Positions 41,930 through 51,273 of a stretch of 64,000 bases of DNA are shown here, in pieces. Within the stretch, counting starts at the first letter, position 1. Each line of letters opens with the position of its first letter. Position numbers and translations under genes: made by a program. The stretch comes from Thermococcus peptonophilus (GTDB taxonomy: Archaea; Methanobacteriota_B; Thermococci; Thermococcales; Thermococcaceae): NCBI RefSeq assembly GCF_001592435.1, contig NZ_CP014750.1, forward strand, positions 1 to 64,000. The letters are read 5' to 3'. The notes beneath the pieces are model-generated. The model saw nothing but the letters and a program-made list of their open reading frames with translations. It ran no database searches and was not told the DNA's origin.

Positions 41930-42186
41930 CAGATTATCTCCCCCACGGGGCTTTTGTCGGTTCCAATTACGTGGAGCGTGAAGTTTGAACCTGGGAGCTC
42001 GTAGATTAGAACGGAGTCGTTATCCTCAATGAGGTCCTCAAGCGTTCTCTTTATCTCGTAAAGCTGTGCCCTCGTCACTTCGCCCTCGAAGACGCTGTTC
42101 TGGCGCCAGTGGAGGTGAGTCCTGAGGAAGCGGTGAACTTTCGAGACACGCTTAACGTCAACATCATAGACAACTATGACGTACAT
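41929..42186 (-). CDS. cas2: CRISPR adaptation protein Cas2
   Basis: 85 residues of ferredoxin-like fold. MYVIVVYDVDVKRVSKVHRFLRTHLHWRQNSVFEGEV is the canonical Cas2 start with the conserved Asp 8 and the Arg-rich helix; SVLIYEL is the last strand of the core. With Cas1 it forms the spacer integrase. Its ATG overlaps the cas1 stop by one base (TGATG), and its own stop overlaps the cas4 start the same way, so the three are translated as a chain. Confidence 0.97.
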   Translation of the reverse strand: MYVIVVYDVDVKRVSKVHRFLRTHLHWRQNSVFEGEVTRAQLYEIKRTLEDLIEDNDSVLIYELPGSNFTLHVIGTDKSPVGEII

Positions 42187-43139
42187 CACCACCACGCCCG
42201 CAGAGAGGTGTAAGTCTTATCCCCAAATAGGTGCCTAACGAGGGAGTACCCTTCAAGCCTGATGAGGTACCTAATGGAAACGTTCCTCTTGAGCCTCGGG
42301 TGGAGGACTTTCCTCTCAAGCTCGCCGTTAAGCTCTGGCAGAAAAACCCTCAGCCCCTCGCGGTTGAACATGACTCCAACGTCCCTCTCGAAGTGCTCTT
42401 CCTTTATCTTTCCCCTGTTTACGAGCCTCAGAATGACGCGGAAGACCGTTACCGGCTTGAAGATGTCGGCGAAGTCGAGGGCCAGCGAGTACCTCCTCTC
42501 GAGAGGTTCGTGGAGGAAGCTTATGGCAGGGTGGAGGTAGGTCTTCCTTATCTCCGAGAGGGCCACAGTGTATAGGACGGAGTTGCCGTAGCTTATCATG
42601 GCGTTGACCTCGTCCTTAGGCGGCCTTCTGTTCCTCTCCTTGAACTCGAAGTTCTTTAAGAGCGACCCGAAGATCGTGTAGAACTCCTTCCAAAGGGTGC
42701 TTTCAACTCCCATAAGCTCGGCCGGGCTTTCTCCCTCAACTGGAACTTCCTCGATTGCTGAGGCATCGGCGCGGTAGGACTTCAGAAGGGCGAGCATTGA
42801 GGCCTTTATTCCCTTAACGAACTGGCCTGCTATGTAGAGGCGCTTTTCACTGTCAAGGTAGTGCTCAGCCTGCCTTATAACAACGCTCCCGCTCACCTGC
42901 CCCTCGGCGGGCATGTAGGAGCCTCTGTAGTAGCCGTACTTGTTGTAGAAATGGACGGGAACGTTCTTCTCGGAGAGGAGCTTTATGGCGCCGCTCGTCA
43001 GCGTTACTGGTTTGAAGCAGTGCACCTCGCTTGTGGAGTTCACGGGAATGGCCTTCTTCCCGTTTTCGTTCTCGAAGAAGAGGGTGTTGCCCTTCCTCTC
43101 AAGGACACCCATCTGGGTTATGTACACGGGCTTCTTCAT
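42186..43139 (-). CDS. cas1: CRISPR integrase Cas1
   Basis: 317-residue integrase. Metal ligands lie in GVESTLWKEFYTIFG (Glu), THPAISFLHEPLERRYSLALDFADIFKP (His and Asp/Glu). The fold opens with VYITQMGVLERKGNTLFFENENGKKAIPV, as expected. The start ATG at 43139 is only three bases from the terminal degenerate repeat of array 1 (43143-43171), whose last six bases GGTGGT act as its ribosome site. There is no space for a separate promoter between array and gene, so cas1-cas2-cas4-cas3 may be read from the array 1 leader or from a promoter inside the array. Confidence 0.97.
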   Translation of the reverse strand: MKKPVYITQMGVLERKGNTLFFENENGKKAIPVNSTSEVHCFKPVTLTSGAIKLLSEKNVPVHFYNKYGYYRGSYMPAEGQVSGSVVIRQAEHYLDSEKRLYIAGQFVKGIKASMLALLKSYRADASAIEEVPVEGESPAELMGVESTLWKEFYTIFGSLLKNFEFKERNRRPPKDEVNAMISYGNSVLYTVALSEIRKTYLHPAISFLHEPLERRYSLALDFADIFKPVTVFRVILRLVNRGKIKEEHFERDVGVMFNREGLRVFLPELNGELERKVLHPRLKRNVSIRYLIRLEGYSLVRHLFGDKTYTSLRAWW

Positions 43140-43142
43140 AGC

Positions 43143-44313
43143 ACCACCGCACGACTGCGTTCTACGGAAACTTTCCCGGAGAACTCCACTGATTTCGGCC
43201 CGAGGACCAGCATCACCTTTCCACACGATTACGTTCTACGGAAACCTCTACAGGTTCGTCACCATGGAGGAGGCACCAAGGGCTTTCCACACGATTACGT
43301 TCTACGGAAACCCCCTAAGCACTTCATTATCTACTTTGGTCCGTATAATCTTTCCACACGATTACGTTCTACGGAAACGGGTCTTGTCGGTGTCATAAAC
43401 GACTTTGACCTTGTAACTTTCCACACGATTACGTTCTACGGAAACATAAGCGAGAGGGTCTGGAACCTTGAGAATTGTTGAACTTTCCACACGATTACGT
43501 TCTACGGAAACCGAGGCTAACGCTTGAGATGGTCGGAGCGGTCGTATCAGCTTTCCACACGATTACGTTCTACGGAAACGTTGGCATAGCCCTGTGGGTG
43601 AAAAGCGTCCATCAGTGCCCCTTTCCACACGATTACGTTCTACGGAAACGCAATCATCCCTCACAAACGCCGCGTTCTTCGGCGGACTTTCCACACGATT
43701 ACGTTCTACGGAAACCTTCGTGATGGATGCAATACGTCACAGGATCGAGGAATACTTTCCACACGATTACGTTCTACGGAAACCTCGCGACCTCCCCTTC
43801 AATTTTCTCCCGCTCAAGATCTTTCCACACGATTACGTTCTACGGAAACCTCACCATCCCGGCCGGCACGAGCGAGCCGGCGAGAAGCTTTCCACACGAT
43901 TACGTTCTACGGAAACTCTGGCTATTTCCAGAGTCTTACCCTCGAAAAGCAACTCCTTTCCACACGATTACGTTCTACGGAAACAAGAGAAAGTCCAGAA
44001 CGACGAGCCTGTGCAGTGGACTTTCCACACGATTACGTTCTACGGAAACCAGGCAGTACATCAGGCACTCCAGGAGCTCGACAAGCTCTTTCCACACGAT
44101 TACGTTCTACGGAAACCTCTTCGATGTCGATGTTCAGAATATCTCCCTTGGCTTTCCACACGATTACGTTCTACGGAAACGGGTTTGACCTCAGTGCTCA
44201 GGCCAGGACCCTTTCCGCCTTTCCACACGATTACGTTCTACGGAAACTTGGTAGTGAAGAGTGTGGTAAGCTGTGCTTGAAGGCCTTTCCACACGATTAC
44301 GTTCTACGGAAAC
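43143..44313 (-). CRISPR. CRISPR array 1: 18 repeats of 29 nt, 17 spacers
   Basis: Repeat starts on the plus strand are 43143, 43217, 43283, 43350, 43417, 43483, 43551, 43621, 43687, 43755, 43821, 43888, 43956, 44021, 44088, 44152, 44219 and 44285. In crRNA sense (minus strand) repeats begin GTTTCCGTAGAACG and end CGTGTGGAAAG. Seventeen are identical. The one at 43143 is degenerate at its 3' end and marks the old, leader-distal end. Spacers are 35-41 nt, except the last one next to the degenerate repeat (45 nt). The leader is on the right (44314 onward), so transcription is leftward, toward cas1. Cleavage by Cas6 should leave the 8-nt handle GTGGAAAG. Confidence 0.98.
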
Positions 44314-44774
44314 ACTTCACTTTCCTCCTTCATTTGACAAATAAAGTGATTTCCCAACTCCTATTTAAGGCTTTCTTTGGGAACCCGTGGCACTGCACCC
44401 CATTTATAAACCTGACACAAAAACGAAGAACCCACCAAAGGGCTTGGAATTGTGACAACACACTTCAAAACATTTGAAAATTCTATTTCAAAAATCGAAA
44501 CTAAGTTTAATAAATTTATGGCCAATAAAATCATTGAAAACAAAATCCATGGACAAAGAGGACTTTTCAACTATCTAAACTCCAGAGACTCTACTTCATT
44601 TGCATATTTGGGACTTTTTATGTCTTTTATGCAAAACGTATCCATTCAGCGAACTCTTACCACCAGTATGGTAAACAGAAAATGAAAACTCTTCTAATCA
44701 ACATAAATCTTTTTTAAACCCTTTAAATCAACTAAAATCAAAAACATAGAGTGAACAGAAAGTGAAATGAGATT
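44314..44774 (-). promoter_or_regulatory. leader of CRISPR array 1 and cst operon 3' region
   Basis: 461 AT-rich nt without a gene. The first 105 nt match leader 2 almost base for base and hold a conserved TATA box (TTTATAAA, 44403-44410) and a second TATA-like element (CTTAAATAG near 44362-44369). Next to the array are a palindrome ATTTG-A-CAAAT (44332-44342) and CACTTT/AAAGTG arms (44318-44323, 44343-44348), both conserved in leader 2 and likely integration-anchoring signals. An 18-bp palindrome lies at 44657-44674. The right end holds oligo-T runs on the minus strand that could end the cas5 mRNA. Confidence 0.8.
44657..44674. promoter_or_regulatory. leader-associated palindrome, copy 1
   Basis: TTACCACCAGTATGGTAA has TTACCA/TGGTAA arms and is followed by ACA. 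A near copy occurs at 51121-51138 at almost the same distance from the other array (343 nt against 342 nt from the last base of the first repeat), while most of the sequence between is not conserved. A protein-binding site for leader control is the simplest reading. Confidence 0.5.
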
Positions 44775-45458
44775 TCAGAACACGAAAACAGGTTCTCCGT
44801 CAAAGAGTAGCACGCTCGCTGGATTGGCGAGCTCCACGAAGCCGCCGGCGAAGGCTATGACCCGCTGGTAGACCGCCCTCCTCTTCTTCCCGCTGTAGGT
44901 AAAGTCCACGGGCATTCGGTACTCCCTGGGCGTCAGGTTGTTCCGTCTCATCACGAGGAACCTCGCGCCCCTGGCGTAGTCCTCGGCCGGGATGATGCTC
45001 TTCAGCGTGCTTTCCCTCCCCTCCTCGACCTCGACTACTTTCATCCACTCCCTCTTTGCTGGGTAGAGTAGGCTCTCGCTGTCCCCAACGTAGGGGGCAA
45101 ATACCGGATCGAGGAGGGCATCGTAGGCCTTTTCTATTAGTTTATCATCGCCCGCAAAGAACATACGGTAGTGAGGCCTGTGGAAGAGCACCTTCGTTAT
45201 TGGATAAATGGGGGCGCTGGCGTTCTTGAATATCGCCGCCGTCTCCTCCACCCTCGCTCCAGGGTCTTCTACTACGACACCGTACTTTAGCTCATTCAAG
45301 AGCTTTCTGAAGCCCTCCTCCGGCAGCCCCATGGCCCCAGCGACCATTCCTATCGCCGTTGTCCTCGGTGGGAATGGATAGCTGTCGAGGAGGAGGGAGT
45401 TGTAGGGAATCCTGAAGTGCGCCTGCAGGGGCTTTACTTCCACGACGAGGCCCAGCAC
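44775..45458 (-). CDS. cas5: type I-B Cascade subunit Cas5 (Cst5-like)
   Basis: 227-residue RAMP protein. The N-terminal strand and loop (LGLVVEVKPLQAHFRIPYNSLLLDSYPFPPRTTAIGMVAGAMG) is the Cas5 hallmark, where the pocket holds the 5' handle of the crRNA. The rest is a compact RAMP with Gly-rich turns (FAGGFVELANPASVLLF). It caps the foot of the Cascade backbone with Cas8. The GTG at 45458 has GGTGAGTGAC upstream; a GTG at 45467 is also in frame but lacks a site. The gene overlaps or abuts the cas7 stop and is the last of the cas6-cas8-cas7-cas5 operon. Confidence 0.9.
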   Translation of the reverse strand: MLGLVVEVKPLQAHFRIPYNSLLLDSYPFPPRTTAIGMVAGAMGLPEEGFRKLLNELKYGVVVEDPGARVEETAAIFKNASAPIYPITKVLFHRPHYRMFFAGDDKLIEKAYDALLDPVFAPYVGDSESLLYPAKREWMKVVEVEEGRESTLKSIIPAEDYARGARFLVMRRNNLTPREYRMPVDFTYSGKKRRAVYQRVIAFAGGFVELANPASVLLFDGEPVFVF

Positions 45459-45459
45459 G

Positions 45460-46443
45460 TCACTCACCGAGCTTCAGGTTTTGTATCCTCTCCCTCAGCT
45501 CCTTCATGCTGAGAACCTCTACCTTCTCCATTCCCTCAAAGGCCTTCTTAAGCTCGTCCACGTTGGCGAAGCGGTTTTCGAAGAGGCCGATGTAGAGCTT
45601 CTCTATGTTGTCGTCAAACGCCTCCACGGTCTCCTTGAGGAGGTCAACGTCGAGGACGAGCTTTCCGTCAACGTAGCCGGGCTTCACGCGGAGAGCGTCC
45701 CCGATTACTGGAATCTTGTACCTCAGCAGGGCGACGACCATCACCTCGGGATAGACCTTGGTGAAGAAGTTGCTGAGCTTTGCGCCGCCGTGGTACTGCA
45801 TTATAGCCTCAAGCAGGGCCTTCAGGCGCTTCTCCCGCTCCTCCTTCGGGAGAATGTAGAGCGTAACTTCCTTTCCCGTGGCGTCCTTCTCCTTTTTAGC
45901 CTCAAGGCCCTCAAGTTTGGGAACCTCAAGGCCCTCCTTGAAAACGCCGAGCCTGTCAACCTCTATGAAGAAGTTGCCCCTCATGACGTTGGTGGTTATC
46001 TCGGTCTCGTATATGTTGTGGTTGTCCCCGCTCGGGTCGTAACGGACCCCAAAGTCCCTGTCCTCCTGATAGGGGAAGATTGATATCATGCCGTTTGTTC
46101 TGACGACGGCTGTCCTCTTGGGGTCTTTCACATTACCAACTTTCTTTCCTGCGAGCATGTAGCCAAAGAGGTCGTCGTCTATGTACTTGTGCGGCTCGCC
46201 GAGGGAAACTATGACCTTTTGGCCGCCCTCGCTCTTTGGAACGACCTGGCTCAGATCCCAACCAAGCTCCTTCAACAGCTGTCTGAGGTGGTACTTAACG
46301 CTCTGGCCGCTCACTCTGACGTACTCCCTACCATCAATGGGGTCGCGCACCTTCTTGAGGACGGCGATAACGCCCTCAGTCCCGTTCGAGTTCAAGTTTG
46401 CACCTTCAACCTTCGTCAGGGTAACGACCTCAATCGCCTTCAC
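45460..46443 (-). CDS. cas7: type I-B Cascade backbone subunit Cas7 (Cst2/DevR family)
   Basis: 327-residue RAMP. EVVTLTKVEGANLNSNGTEGVI at the start, VRVSGQSVKYHLRQLLKELG (about 44) and TNVMRGNFFIEVDRLGVFKEG mark the Cst2/DevR family that coats the crRNA spacer in Tneap-type Cascade. Start is taken as the GTG at 46443, with GGAGGTGATAAGG just upstream inside the cas8 end. A GTG at 46452 would add three residues, but then the ribosome site overlaps the start. The 14-nt overlap with cas8 suggests coupled translation. Confidence 0.93.
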   Translation of the reverse strand: MKAIEVVTLTKVEGANLNSNGTEGVIAVLKKVRDPIDGREYVRVSGQSVKYHLRQLLKELGWDLSQVVPKSEGGQKVIVSLGEPHKYIDDDLFGYMLAGKKVGNVKDPKRTAVVRTNGMISIFPYQEDRDFGVRYDPSGDNHNIYETEITTNVMRGNFFIEVDRLGVFKEGLEVPKLEGLEAKKEKDATGKEVTLYILPKEEREKRLKALLEAIMQYHGGAKLSNFFTKVYPEVMVVALLRYKIPVIGDALRVKPGYVDGKLVLDVDLLKETVEAFDDNIEKLYIGLFENRFANVDELKKAFEGMEKVEVLSMKELRERIQNLKLGE

Positions 46444-47758
46444 CCTTATCACCTCCGTAGAGAGCGTTCAGCATCCCGTTGAGCAGGATCGCCTTCACGA
46501 CCTTCCATTCATTGCGGTTCTCGTAGACGGGCCTGAGGTCGAGGCCCGTCTCAAGCTTCGCCTGGAGCTCAACGAGCTTGTTCACAAACTCCTCGAAGCC
46601 CCTTGCCCTGAAGAGCTCCCACTGGTAGCGCTCAAGGTTCGTGCCCTTCATGGCTTTCCCAAGGGCGTAGCCGAGCCCGTTAATCTTCTCGAAAGTCTCC
46701 TTGTCCACAACATCACCCCCGAAGGCTTCAAAGTAGGAGCGGGCCCAGGTGAGGTAGTAGGCAGGGAGCGGCAGTTTGTTCTTCACCCGCTCCATGAAAA
46801 TCCCGTTTAAAAGAACGAAATCGAACCTTCCCGAGAGGAGCCTTGAGATGAACTCCTCCCGCTCAAGGAAGTTCTTAGCCCTGTCCTTTCCCCTCGGTAT
46901 CTCAAGCATCTCGTAGAAGAGCACCACACCGGAGTCCCTCCTTTCGAGGTGCCGTTTTCCCCAGTTCGTCTCCTTCCCCGCTTCCTGAACTCTATCAATG
47001 AACCCGATGAGCCTCTCAAGGGTCGTGCCCTCTATCGTTCTCTCTTTGTATATCTGGCCCGAGCCGTAAACCAGGTATGCCCTAACGGTTCTTCCAACTT
47101 CAACGGTTTCCTTCAGCATCCTCCTGTTCTTGAGGAACTTGACGAACTCGTGGAGAACGGCAAAGAAGGCCTCGTTCGGGTGGTACCTGCTGAGTGCCAG
47201 CTTGGCGCTTATGGAGTACCTTTTCTTTCCGTCCCTTGTCTCTGCCGTGACCTTGAAGTTTTCCATCCAGAAGTCGTCCTTGAAGGTTTTCTTGAAGCGC
47301 TTCAGATCGCGTTCAGGGGCGTCGAAGAAAAAGCGGAGCGTTGAGCCTCCAACCGGGACGGTGTAGAGGTAGGCCATCGCGGAGTAGAGCTTGAAGGCAT
47401 GCTCGATGCAGAAGTGTAATCTGCCATTGTCCGATACTATTGAATCTATCTTCCTCTCGAAGGGAAAAATGAACGATTTATTACTCACTATCTCTTTCTT
47501 CTGCCCGCAAAGCGAACATACTCCCTTTTTTGATTTGGTGAGGCTCTGATGGATCTTCACTTTGTTGTCACTTTTTGGAAGCTCAAACTTGAACGCTCGG
47601 AGAACCGATATCGCGTCTTGCTCTGAATCAACGGGAGCGCCGTTGGTCATCTCCGAGACTGGCAGTAGATAGTTTTCATTGATGACCCCTGGTGTTATCT
47701 CCTCAATTCCCATCTCCCGGAGAAAGAGCTCGCCGTTCTTGAGGTATGCGTCTAGCAT
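46430..47758 (-). CDS. cas8: type I-B Cascade large subunit Cas8 (Cst1 family)
   Basis: 442 residues. The zinc-finger half CSLCGQKK (about 96) is the Cst1 mark, with another Cys/His pair in LHFCIEHAFKLY about 50 residues later. The remaining sequence is mostly helical and poorly conserved, as usual for large subunits. It should recognise the PAM and recruit Cas3. The ATG at 47758 is preceded by GGAGGTGAGTTGCCGG, whose TGA is the cas6 stop, so spacing is tight and the genes are surely co-transcribed. Confidence 0.88.
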   Translation of the reverse strand: MLDAYLKNGELFLREMGIEEITPGVINENYLLPVSEMTNGAPVDSEQDAISVLRAFKFELPKSDNKVKIHQSLTKSKKGVCSLCGQKKEIVSNKSFIFPFERKIDSIVSDNGRLHFCIEHAFKLYSAMAYLYTVPVGGSTLRFFFDAPERDLKRFKKTFKDDFWMENFKVTAETRDGKKRYSISAKLALSRYHPNEAFFAVLHEFVKFLKNRRMLKETVEVGRTVRAYLVYGSGQIYKERTIEGTTLERLIGFIDRVQEAGKETNWGKRHLERRDSGVVLFYEMLEIPRGKDRAKNFLEREEFISRLLSGRFDFVLLNGIFMERVKNKLPLPAYYLTWARSYFEAFGGDVVDKETFEKINGLGYALGKAMKGTNLERYQWELFRARGFEEFVNKLVELQAKLETGLDLRPVYENRNEWKVVKAILLNGMLNALYGGDKGEGD

Positions 47759-47766
47759 CCGGCAAC

Positions 47767-48480
47767 TCACCTCCAAATAGGATTAACAAAGCCAAAGCCG
47801 AGACTGTTCTTTTCCCCAAGGCCGACATCCATGAGGAAGCGGTAGAACTTCCTCTCCTCTGGTTTTATGCGCTCCTTTTCGAGAAGCTCCCAGTTGGAGC
47901 CGATGACTGGAAAAGGAACCCCGTTCTTGACGACCTTCACGTAAACGTCTATCTTCCCATTCTGTCTAACTTTTGGTATCATCCTATCAAACAACGGGCC
48001 TTCGAGGGAAAGTTCCTCTCCATAGAAGGCGTTGTACTTCTTCTCGGCGTTCTCTTTAAGACGATCGAGAAAAAAGCGCAGGTCCCTATGGGCGTGGAGC
48101 TTGAAGTACTCGTTTTTGCTGGCGTTCCTGTAGATGACAACCGGTGAGCCTGTCTGGAAGGCTTTCCTAAGAGGGAGCCTGAACTTTCTGAGCTCCGCAA
48201 CTTGGTACTCATTCTTCCCGATGTGGATACTCTCCCTTTCCTTGATGGTCGAGTGAAGGGCATTAATGAAGCCTCTCTCTGGGGAGGAAACTATAAAAGT
48301 CGGCCTCCCCTCCCTGTCCAAGAAAAAGTCAGAGAACGTGAAGAACTTGAACTTCGGCTGGTCGTGTCTCTCCCCGTACTCAGTTCCTTTCAGCATGTGG
48401 TAAATAAAGCCTTGGACTGCGTGCTTATTCGGTCGCGAAAACTCGTTATTTAAGGATATTAGTGTTAACTTTAGTCTCAT
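47767..48480 (-). CDS. cas6: CRISPR repeat endoribonuclease Cas6
   Basis: 237-residue double-RAMP RNase that cuts pre-crRNA in the repeat. The C-terminal Gly-rich loop GLGEKNSLGFGFV is diagnostic. By comparison with P. furiosus Cas6 (Tyr31, His46, Lys52), Tyr27 (in FIYHMLKG), His39 (in ERHDQ) and Lys45 (in KFKFFTF) are the likely catalytic triad. It is the only Cas6 here and must serve both arrays, although their repeats differ at two positions. The ATG follows GGTGAAAATT. Its own promoter and a dyad lie upstream (48492-48540). Confidence 0.94.
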   Translation of the reverse strand: MRLKLTLISLNNEFSRPNKHAVQGFIYHMLKGTEYGERHDQPKFKFFTFSDFFLDREGRPTFIVSSPERGFINALHSTIKERESIHIGKNEYQVAELRKFRLPLRKAFQTGSPVVIYRNASKNEYFKLHAHRDLRFFLDRLKENAEKKYNAFYGEELSLEGPLFDRMIPKVRQNGKIDVYVKVVKNGVPFPVIGSNWELLEKERIKPEERKFYRFLMDVGLGEKNSLGFGFVNPIWR

Positions 48481-48491
48481 AATTTTCACCA

Positions 48492-48540
48492 GACAACACG
48501 AGTTGTCGATTACATCCTTTGTTATCCGTGCTTATAAATT
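48492..48540 (-). promoter_or_regulatory. promoter and dyad of the cas6-cas8-cas7-cas5 operon
   Basis: AATTTATAAG (48531-48540, minus strand) is a TATA box about 52 nt before the cas6 ATG. Downstream, at 48492-48507, is a perfect inverted repeat of 6-bp arms, GACAAC and GTTGTC, with a 4-bp centre, ending 12 nt before the ATG and covering the expected start of transcription. It may be an operator for Cascade expression. Confidence 0.55.
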
Positions 48541-48597
48541 TTACTTTCAAATAGCTATTTGGGATATTATCATTGTGGGAGAGAAGACTAGATGCTG

Positions 48598-50778
48598 GAA
48601 TTCGTACGATTATGTCCTACGGAAACAGAACGGCAACGGGATAATTACACGGAAGCAAAAGTTATTTCCACACGACTACGTTCTACGGAAACTTACCCTT
48701 TCTTTTTCTGGCTCTTCTGCTAGAATTCAAAAATTTCCACACGACTACGTTCTACGGAAACCAGCCGCGATGACGACGGGAATGTGCTCCTCTCTGAATT
48801 TCCACACGACTACGTTCTACGGAAACTTCAGAATGCGGGCGACGAGGTTAGTATTAGCGTGGATTTCCACACGACTACGTTCTACGGAAACCGGGGAAGG
48901 TCCCGCGGGCGGGCCGTTGAAAGGCCCGGATTTCCACACGACTACGTTCTACGGAAACTTTTCAGGTTTGATGTGTGCCAGCAATAACACTTCTAATTTC
49001 CACACGACTACGTTCTACGGAAACCCTCGAGCTGAAAGACATAGAGACGGGGCTATTTGGTTCATTTCCACACGACTACGTTCTACGGAAACGTGAGGGG
49101 TCTTCAGATCCGCGTGAAGGAGCTCGAGGAGAGGGTATTTCCACACGACTACGTTCTACGGAAACTCAAACTGGTAGGCCTCGGGCTGGCTGCATGTTTT
49201 TCGTATTTCCACACGACTACGTTCTACGGAAACCCGAAGATCATGAGAGCAATGCCCCAAATCAGGTGGGATTTCCACACGACTACGTTCTACGGAAACT
49301 TCTCCAGGAACTTCTGAAAGCCAACGAGGAACATTGATTTCCACACGACTACGTTCTACGGAAACGTCGCCCTCTTTCCTGTACAGGCCGGACTTCTTCG
49401 AGATTTCCACACGACTACGTTCTACGGAAACAATTTCCGCGTGCTCAACCGTCGTAAGGTTCCCAAAATATTTCCACACGACTACGTTCTACGGAAACTC
49501 TGAAAGCTGAAAATGAAAAACTGAGGAAGGAGCTATTTCCACACGACTACGTTCTACGGAAACAAGGGTGTTTATGCCATTAAGGTGAACGGAAGAACAT
49601 ATGATTTCCACACGACTACGTTCTACGGAAACCCCTGTTGAGTCGAAGCGCCAGGCCTTGATGGCTAATTTCCACACGACTACGTTCTACGGAAACGTGT
49701 TCTCCAGTACCCGGAGTTTGAACTCGACGGCGATTTCCACACGACTACGTTCTACGGAAACCAGAATAGCTGTGAAAACAAATGATGGCTTTACAGCGAC
49801 ATTTCCACACGACTACGTTCTACGGAAACATCGTCCGTGACGGTCTGCGTGCTCAGGTTGCCGAGGATTTCCACACGACTACGTTCTACGGAAACCCCGA
49901 TTCTGCCCGTCACGAGGCTCGGATTTGTCCCGTATTTCCACACGACTACGTTCTACGGAAACCGAAAGGGGCTTCTCAACGTATTACTCACAAAAAAGAA
50001 AGCATTTCCACACGACTACGTTCTACGGAAACGTTCAGGAGCTCAACCACGTGGGCCAGCCTCAGGCCAGATTTCCACACGACTACGTTCTACGGAAACA
50101 CATTTACATCGACAATGCTCTTGTCGCATCTAAGGCTGATTTCCACACGACTACGTTCTACGGAAACTGTTCCCTGAGTGCTTTAGGCAGGTGTATCAAC
50201 CTGTTATTTCCACACGACTACGTTCTACGGAAACCTCTTCATATATTCAAAAGATACGAGCATTCTCGACAGCTATTTCCACACGACTACGTTCTACGGA
50301 AACGCGCCCTAGATAGGTGGGTCTCGAAGAGGAAGCTCGATTTCCACACGACTACGTTCTACGGAAACCTCAAGCTTCGGCTACGAGAGTGAAGGCTTCC
50401 TCCGTATTTCCACACGACTACGTTCTACGGAAACCGGACGAGGAGGAGCGTTTCAAGAACGCTCGGAGAGAAGATTTCCACACGACTACGTTCTACGGAA
50501 ACGGCAAGGACGCAGTGAAGTACCTGGAGGAGGTTGTGCCATTTCCACACGACTACGTTCTACGGAAACCTGGTCAAAATAAGCTCCAATCATCGCCTCG
50601 AACTTGTCAGATTTCCACACGACTACGTTCTACGGAAACTTGTCTTCCACGCTGGTCTCGGTTTGTAGGCAATGAATACTCATTTCCACACGACTACGTT
50701 CTACGGAAACGCCCTGCCCAACTTCTCCAGCTCACCCATGATGGCCTTGATTTCCACACGACTACGTTCTACGGAAAC
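48598..50778 (-). CRISPR. CRISPR array 2: 33 repeats of 29 nt, 32 spacers
   Basis: The first canonical repeat on the plus strand starts at 48664, the last at 50750. A degenerate repeat at 48598-48626 marks the old end. In crRNA sense repeats begin GTTTCCGTAGAACG and end CGTGTGGAAAT. Compared with array 1 there is G for A at position 17 and T for G at position 29. Thirty-two repeats are identical to each other. Spacers are about 36-41 nt. The leader is on the right at 50779 onward, so transcription is leftward, toward cas6, whose start lies 118 nt beyond the degenerate repeat. Confidence 0.98.
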
Positions 50779-51273
50779 CCTTCACTTTCCTCCTTCATTT
50801 GACAAATAAAGTGATTTCCAACTCCTATTTAAGACTTTCTCCGGAAACCTGTAGCACTGCACTCCACTTATAAACTTGCCACAAAACTAGAGGAGCGTTC
50901 ACAGACTTTCTAACCCCAATTTCATGCACAAATTGGGTTCTATTACCTATCCAAAAAATCGAAAATGAAATAGATGGATTTAAACCTCTATATCGGTCTG
51001 AAATTCTTGTCTATCTTGTTTCAGGCCTTCCAGACTATTTAAACTTCCCCTAGAATTGTCCAACAGAACCATTGGGGCCTTCTGGCCTTTTTCTTACGGA
51101 TGGATACATTTTACGAAAAATTACCACTGACGTGGTAAACAAAAGCTGATCTCCTATATTGGGCCTTAAAATTTCAAAGTTGACGTTTATCTCCTCCTAA
51201 TTACTCATCTGAGGACAAGCAGAGCTTTAAAGCTTAAAAGTTAGCCCGAGAGCCATTCTTGCCCTTCCCGGTG
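50779..51273 (-). promoter_or_regulatory. leader of CRISPR array 2
   Basis: 495 nt with no gene. The first 105 nt are nearly identical to leader 1, including CACTTT/AAAGTG arms, ATTTG-A-CAAAT, the TATA-like AAATAG element and CTTATAAAC at 50867-50875 (90 nt from the array, as in leader 1). Beyond that the sequence is AT-rich and mostly unlike leader 1, except for the 18-bp palindrome at 51121-51138. No other gene or RNA was recognised here. Confidence 0.8.
51121..51138. promoter_or_regulatory. leader-associated palindrome, copy 2
   Basis: TTACCACTGACGTGGTAA is a perfect dyad with 7-bp arms and is followed by ACA, as is the copy at 44657-44674. Between the two leaders both its sequence and its distance to the array (342 against 343 nt) are kept, which argues for function. 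Confidence 0.55.

What the first reader, a model, noticed from the sequence alone, without database searches (positions are those of the whole stretch)
44314..51138. Duplicated leaders with a distance-locked upstream palindrome
The proximal 105 nt of both leaders are nearly identical. Farther up most of the sequence differs, yet an 18-bp palindrome (TTACCAC-N4-RTGGTAA, then ACA) occurs in both at 343 and 342 nt from the array. Keeping motif and spacing while the rest drifts points to a bound protein: a regulator of pre-crRNA, an integration host-type factor, or the edge of the duplicated unit.
Basis: seen in the sequence. Interest (0 to 1): 0.7.

Follow-up and report, generated by a model that had tools for sequence, protein, structure and literature searches.

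The report
Fixed-address palindrome in archaeal CRISPR leaders
Far upstream of many CRISPR arrays in Thermococcus and Pyrococcus relatives sits a short palindrome at an almost fixed distance, probably a docking site for an unknown protein that helps to extend or read the array.

Summary
Both palindromes are where reported, with 343 and 342 nt between them and the arrays. The genome's only other array of this repeat family carries one too, also at 343. A model of the proximal 115 nt of the leader found 57 leaders in 31 of 94 Thermococcaceae genomes; 42 have the palindrome at 342-346 nt. The intervening DNA is near-random (median identity 0.33; composition baseline 0.265). The 42 form 20 groups at 50% interval identity.

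The palindrome is one of several sites at fixed distances (about 322, 256, 180, 89 and 73 nt). A model of the palindrome block finds nothing strong outside CRISPR leaders or their remains (45 strong places, then chance level). Seven leaders keep the shared sites but carry another block (ATCGAA, exactly 346 nt out) at the same address, so this palindrome is replaceable while the address is kept.

There are no compensatory changes, so an RNA hairpin is unlikely. Best reading: the outer docking site of a dimeric protein in a leader-wide complex that guides spacer integration, perhaps also transcription; Sulfolobales offer published parallels. The binder is unknown; Csa3 does not fit. Function was not tested.

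The parts
44657..44674 (-). palindrome of leader 1, TTACCATACTGGTGGTAA read towards the array; gap to array 343 nt
51121..51138 (-). palindrome of leader 2, TTACCACGTCAGTGGTAA read towards the array; gap to array 342 nt
44623..44698 (-). distal block of leader 1 (match of model R2)
   Evidence: E 1.2e-13 (the model was built with this sequence)
51087..51161 (-). distal block of leader 2 (match of model R2)
   Evidence: E 7.2e-14 (the model was built with this sequence)
44636..44645 (-). weaker second dyad position of leader 1 (ATG-N4-CAT type), gap 322
   Evidence: suggestion only,
51100..51109 (-). weaker second dyad position of leader 2 (ATG-N4-CAT type), gap 321
   Evidence: suggestion only,
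44570..44580 (-). shared site of leader 1, GTTTAGATAGT, gap 256
51034..51044 (-). shared site of leader 2, GTTTAAATAGT, gap 255
44494..44500 (-). TTTCGAT of leader 1, gap 180
50958..50964 (-). TTTCGAT of leader 2, gap 179
44403..44410 (-). TTTATAAA (TATA-like) of leader 1, gap 89
50867..50874 (-). TTTATAAG (TATA-like) of leader 2, gap 88
44391..44396 (-). GCAGTG of leader 1
50855..50860 (-). GCAGTG of leader 2
44315..44427 (-). proximal leader 1 (match of model R1)
50780..50891 (-). proximal leader 2 (match of model R1)
43217..44313 (-). CRISPR array 1, 17 full repeats (CRISPR-DR41), leader at its high end
48664..50778 (-). CRISPR array 2, 32 full repeats (CRISPR-DR41), leader at its high end
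42186..43226 (-). cas1b next to array 1 (context; the true start is probably inside this ORF)
   Evidence: TIGR03641 408.5 bits over cut-off 304.1

Best explanation
The palindrome is the outermost docking site of a long, multi-site leader. A dimeric DNA-binding protein (unknown; not a full-scoring Csa3) binds it through one strong half-site (GTGGTAA) and one weaker. With proteins on the other fixed sites (about 322, 256, 180, 89 and 73 nt from the array) it folds or organises roughly 375 bp of leader DNA into one complex that presents the leader-repeat junction to the Cas1-Cas2 integrase; it may also influence pre-crRNA transcription. Shown here: the sites, their fixed distances, their confinement to these leaders, near-random sequence between them, and the swap of the distal block for another one at the same address. 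Inferred: that a protein binds, that it is a dimer, that the complex serves integration.
For: Palindrome at 342-346 nt in 42 of 57 leaders found with a model that holds no distal sequence, although intervals are 0.33 identical and the leaders form 20 groups. Other sites locked as well. No strong place outside CRISPR leaders or remains in 94 family and 115 phylum-sample genomes, so no ordinary regulon. Leader family tracks one Cas1 lineage: 22 of 24 genomes with it have these leaders, 9 of the other 70 do (my reading). A second block sits at the same address in 7 leaders. A leader whose sites were brought closer by a deletion (gap 194 nt, G060) stands before degenerate repeats only (one case). 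Precedent: S. solfataricus needs at least 400 bp of leader and a host factor for specific integration (PMC5815122); in S. islandicus the Csa3a-bound leader-distal motif matters for acquisition (PMC9456107).
Against: No binding, acquisition or expression data. The palindrome itself is dispensable in 15 of 57 leaders, several next to cas1 and before multi-repeat arrays. Perfect palindromes survive in P. abyssi (G004), which has no Cas1 match, and before a relic array there. No gene for the binder was identified. The neutral indel rate was not measured.
Confidence: 0.5

Rival explanations
1. A transcription regulator (activator or repressor of pre-crRNA) binds the palindrome and acts on the leader promoter some 250-290 bp downstream.
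For: Dyads with a 4-nt spacer look like regulator operators. In S. islandicus one protein, Csa3a, activates array transcription and aids adaptation from the same distal motif (PMC9456107), so both roles may coincide.
Against: The site is far from the TATA-like boxes, and a looping regulator would tolerate steps of a helical turn, not a fixed length. No strong site elsewhere, not even at cas genes. P. abyssi CRISPR 2, most likely the G004 array with a perfect palindrome, gave no transcript (PMC3124441), though that organism has no Cas1 match.
Confidence: 0.25
2. The whole conserved leader is inherited and the fixed spacing is only a low indel rate; the palindrome has a local function or none.
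For: Leaders of one lineage are related, and the first-repeat distance can only change by indels.
Against: Substitutions in the intervals are near saturation while the length stays within about 2 bp in 20 groups; GTGGTAA is near-invariant in the same leaders; a different block holds the same address in seven leaders.
Confidence: 0.12
3. The block belongs to a leader-encoded antisense RNA (the sRk49 locus of P. abyssi), with the palindrome as its 3' hairpin.
For: Phok et al. 2011 report sRk49 RNAs of about 150 and 220 nt, 5' end 1067923, minus strand, TATA 60 nt away (PMC3124441). In G004 that 5' end lies 150 nt upstream of the relic array and the TATA distance falls on the locked TTTATAAA; a 220-nt RNA would end just past the palindrome (my arithmetic).
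Against: Palindrome pairing is no better than shuffled columns (84.3% against 84.2%) and has no both-side change in 41 sequences. The authors could not clone primary transcripts.
Confidence: 0.07
4. An intrinsic terminator that shields the leader from upstream transcription.
For: Leader 2 reads TTACCACGTCAGTGGTAA then TTTTTC on the minus strand and is picked by the terminator scan.
Against: The T-run is not kept: 23 of 42 leaders have fewer than 5 T in the next 8 nt, leader 1 among them. No covariation. A terminator needs no fixed distance.
Confidence: 0.04

Closest known systems
Long CRISPR leader of Saccharolobus (Sulfolobus) solfataricus type I-A (PMC5815122; abstract and passages seen)
   Same: An archaeal leader whose far part matters: 400 bp minimum for specific integration in vitro, 100-bp internal deletions abolish it, an unidentified host factor is needed.
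   Different: Crenarchaeal type I-A, sequence not compared here; function shown there by assay, here only sequence evidence; no fixed-distance palindrome is mentioned in the passages seen.
Csa3a-bound leader-distal motif of Sulfolobus islandicus (PMC9456107; abstract and passages seen)
   Same: A distal leader motif proposed to dock an accessory factor for Cas1-mediated acquisition and for array transcription.
   Different: It lies at -143 to -94, not about -352; Csa3 passes its cut-off in only 9 of the 27 genomes with the block here, and not in the window's genome.
sRk49 locus family of Pyrococcus abyssi and P. horikoshii (PMC3124441; passages and section 6 seen)
   Same: The same DNA: sRk49 has two relatives in P. 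abyssi and three in P. horikoshii, the latter all beside CRISPR cassettes; short elements at fixed distance from the first repeat are mentioned (data not shown).
   Different: Read there as a noncoding RNA locus; only 200 bp of leader analysed for signals; the main text mentions no leader palindrome (find; supplementary files not read).
IHF-bent leaders of bacterial types I-E and I-F (as described in PMC5815122, PMC9456107 and PMC12259127, passages)
   Same: A host factor bound upstream shapes the leader for the integrase.
   Different: Much shorter leaders; IHF site is not this palindrome; IHF-type proteins were not searched for here.

Membership tests
CRISPR leader (distal part) | Lies directly upstream of the first repeat and is shared by arrays of the same repeat family | tested here: met
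   42 of 57 leaders, 342-346 nt
CRISPR leader (distal part) | Needed for acquisition or array transcription | not testable with these tools
   no experiment
Csa3a-type leader-distal motif | Csa3 present in the genomes that carry the site | tested here: not met
   over the cut-off in 9 of the 27 genomes with the block, not in the own genome (best 34.8 bits, cut-off 60.2)
Csa3a-type leader-distal motif | Distal leader motif whose loss reduces acquisition | not testable with these tools
   only the position was compared
Operator of an ordinary transcription regulator (regulon) | Further sites upstream of other genes | tested here: not met
   no strong place of the 80-nt block outside CRISPR leaders or remains in 94 genomes. 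The bare 18-mer with 1 mismatch also occurs away from arrays in other genomes, so lone weaker sites are not excluded
Structured RNA (sRk49-type) | Compensatory changes in the palindrome arms | tested here: not met
   0 pairs with both-side change in 41 sequences
Intrinsic terminator | Stem followed by a T-run in most members | tested here: not met
   19 of 42 have at least 5 T in 8 nt
IHF-type leader site | IHF homologue in the genome | not tested
   no search made

The most novel reading that the evidence does not exclude
Thermococcales leaders are a modular, measured scaffold about 375 bp long: shared sites at fixed addresses near the array, and an outermost address that accepts interchangeable modules (TTACCAC-N4-GTGGTAA, or the ATCGAA block), each read by a different dimeric factor. 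Together they form an archaeal integration complex without IHF, which would explain why archaeal leaders must be so long.
Probability: 0.3. Interest if true: 0.8.

Novelty: new variant of a known kind. Interest (0 to 1): 0.64.

Why it matters
How archaea steer Cas1-Cas2 to the leader end without IHF is open: in S. solfataricus at least 400 bp of leader and an unidentified host factor are needed (PMC5815122). This leader family gives a map with exact addresses that can be mutated one by one, baits for finding the factor, and a natural swap experiment (two distal blocks at one address). Part of the DNA was already known as sRk49 in P. abyssi. In the searches made I found no report of the palindrome or of its fixed distance; a 2025 survey of leader motifs (CRISPR J., cited in PMC12259127) is not held and may list it.

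Tried and rejected
RNA hairpin: no covariation. Terminator: T-run not kept. Csa3: over the cut-off in only 9 of the 27 genomes with the block. Edge of a local duplication: the block recurs across genomes. A remote resemblance of the palindrome to the CRISPR repeat was considered and dropped without a test. A rough regularity of the site centres (about 78-93 bp apart, from palindrome through -256, -180 and -89 to the array) was noted by arithmetic and not tested. A scan of genome contigs for palindrome + 338-350 nt + repeat start gave 8 loci: 4 Thermococcaceae records and 4 unrelated bacteria, about what chance gives for 20 fixed bases (my estimate is six). It did not list complete Thermococcales genomes that do carry the feature, so it says little about absence. 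The second dyad (ATG-N4-CAT) has 14 both-side changes but lies within the shuffles, so it stays a suggestion. A third shared block in L096 and L090 was looked for and not seen (identity 0.40). Flanking genes of the window gave no DNA-binding regulator (18 ORFs scanned).

Rows and choices: none of the 57 R1 matches was dropped from the count of 42; one (G036:133705) is a weak partial match beside another repeat type. 'Palindrome present' meant at least 9 of 14 matches at 341-347 nt; one leader (L094) scores only 9 because its spacer is 3 nt. Of the 25 leaders in R1, four (L040, L055, L060, L084) had first come in through the palindrome region; the model holds no distal sequence. Alignment A2 used 41 of the 42 leaders (one identical copy left out). 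The Cas1 group was set by its score and anchored only by the window's own Cas1b. For genomes that share a species-like origin no further thinning was done beyond the grouping.
Full report
What was checked. The window is from a Thermococcaceae genome of 1,896,106 bases. Two CRISPR arrays with 29-nt repeats flank cas6, an unassigned ORF in the Cas8 position, cas7/cst2 and cas5; cas1b, a probable cas2 (by position and length only), cas4 and cas3 follow, all on the minus strand. Both leaders carry the palindrome described, 343 and 342 nt from the arrays. The genome has 75 repeats of this type in three arrays. The genome's only places with at most 1 mismatch to the pattern are these three leaders.

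Relatives. So as not to select on the palindrome I built a sequence model, R1, from the proximal 115 nt of 25 leaders and searched 94 family genomes: 57 matches in 31 genomes. Of the 57, 42 have the palindrome (at least 9 of 14 positions) at its address: 2 at 342, 23 at 343, 10 at 344, 6 at 345, 1 at 346; 39 of the 42 match at least 11 of 14. In mononucleotide shuffles of the same leaders about 0.6% reach 11 anywhere in a 150-nt stretch. The half nearer the array, GTGGTAA, is perfect in 34 of 42 and one off in the other 8; the outer half is perfect in 7 of 42.

Not only shared ancestry. Grouping the 42 by identity in the intervals between sites gives 20 groups at 50%; in 15 of the 20 the first member lies at 343. 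Among the 23 leaders at exactly 343 the intervals have median identity 0.33 over 253 pairs, 218 of them below 0.40, against 0.265 expected from composition. The length has stayed within about 2 bp while these intervals have nearly randomised. I did not measure a neutral indel rate, so this is an argument, not a test.

More than one site. The same leaders share TTTCGAT (6 or 7 of 7 letters in all 42; gap 180 in 37), a [AG]TTN[AG]AT[AG]GT site (good match in 32 of 42; gap 256 in 26), TTTATAAA (39 of 42; gap 89 in 34), GCAGTG..AC (35 of 42; gap 73 in 31), and a weaker dyad ATG-N4-CAT (33 of 42) whose end lies 21 nt nearer the array than the palindrome's end in 32 of those 33.

Swap at one address. 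Fifteen of 57 leaders lack the palindrome at its address. Seven of them carry another block with ATCGAA (GTCGAA in one) exactly 346 nt out in 7 of 7; the block is 0.64 identical against 0.38 in its flanks. Six of these seven keep TTTCGAT at gap 180 and the seventh has an altered copy there (one search lists for L128 its additional copy at 195). In two of the seven the block holds a perfect dyad with 7-nt arms and a 4-nt spacer (GTTTTAT-AACC-ATAAAAC, GTTTCAT-AGTT-ATGAAAC; by eye). A model of this block found only those seven strongly in 94 genomes (E at most 1.2e-11, next 3.1e-4). The other eight of the fifteen: L090, L096 and L139, which keep TTTCGA[TC] at 180 but have neither block; two in G030; one in G023; the weak G036 match beside another repeat type; and G060, where the block is present but only 194 nt from two degenerate repeats.

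Confined to CRISPR. A model of the 80-nt distal block, R2, gives 45 strong places (E at most 2.9e-7), then nothing until 0.0023. They are the 42 leaders, the G060 leader, a leader fragment in G004 that ends just after TTTCGAT with no array found in the 3 kb fetched, and one at a contig end in G045 where the array would lie off the contig. In 115 genomes of the phylum sample the same 45 places in 27 genomes are found, all in this family. The bare 18-mer with one mismatch does occur away from arrays in other genomes; several such places are tandem palindromes of another kind.

Cas partners. In one search one Cas1 score group (226-257 bits), which includes the window's Cas1b, occurs in 24 genomes; 22 of these have R1 leaders, and 9 of the other 70 do. 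In 20 genomes a Cas1 gene lies within about 3 kb of an R1 leader; that leader has the palindrome in 13, the other block in 3, neither in 4 (my reading). In the four genomes with both palindrome leaders and others (G012, G017, G022, G033; the weak G036 match set aside) the cas1-adjacent leader is always one without the palindrome; the numbers are small. Csa3 exceeds its cut-off in 27 of 94 genomes, 9 of them among the 27 with the block, and not in the window's genome.

What it is not. The palindrome shows no both-side change in 41 sequences and pairs no better than shuffled columns, so selection on an RNA stem is unlikely. The following T-run is not kept.

Known before. Phok et al. 2011 (PMC3124441; passages and section 6 read) described P. 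abyssi sRk49 with relatives beside CRISPR cassettes in P. horikoshii. They examined 200 bp of leader and mention fixed-distance elements without data. Two Sulfolobales papers give the functional precedents: a leader of at least 400 bp with a host factor (PMC5815122, abstract and passages) and a distal Csa3a motif that matters for acquisition (PMC9456107, abstract and passages).

Verdict. The mechanism proposed, an outer docking site in a measured leader complex for integration, is the best fit but rests on distance, distribution and precedent. Transcription control is the main rival, and the two are not exclusive.

Noticed in passing
L095, L127, L128, L092, L093, L089, L133 (leader, about -372 to -318): A second, unrelated distal block (ATCGAA exactly 346 nt from the array, followed by GTTTTATA-like sequence) replaces the palindrome at the same address.
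   Followed up: partly
L087 (G004:C1:1066000-1070500) and L083 (G004:C1:835000-838000): The P. abyssi noncoding RNA locus sRk49 is a complete CRISPR leader before a relic array of one damaged and one better repeat; another copy is a leader fragment cut after TTTCGAT.
   Followed up: partly
L125 (G060:C83): A leader with an internal deletion (palindrome only 194 nt from the repeats) stands before two degenerate repeats.
   Followed up: partly
L113 (G048:C168): A complete leader with the palindrome at 343 nt stands before a single repeat; what follows looks like the start of a cas6-like gene, so this may be an empty or minimal array.
   Followed up: no
L065, L070, L071, L074 (G044, G064, G065, G070): Tandem palindromes of the type TTACCAGTATRCTGGTAA spaced by 34 nt or its multiples, away from detected CRISPR arrays; perhaps iterons or operators of another system.
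   Followed up: no
L063, L067, L068, L078, L080, L085: TTTCCACAGTAGTGGTAA or near-identical copies recur in six genomes away from detected arrays.
   Followed up: no
window 46430-47776, minus strand: The ORF in the Cas8 position of the cas operon matches no NCBIfam or Pfam family at E 0.001.
   Followed up: no
window 43217-44313 and 48664-50778: Array 1 and array 2 repeats differ by one letter throughout (GTAATCG against GTAGTCG); the third array of the genome has the array 2 form.
   Followed up: no
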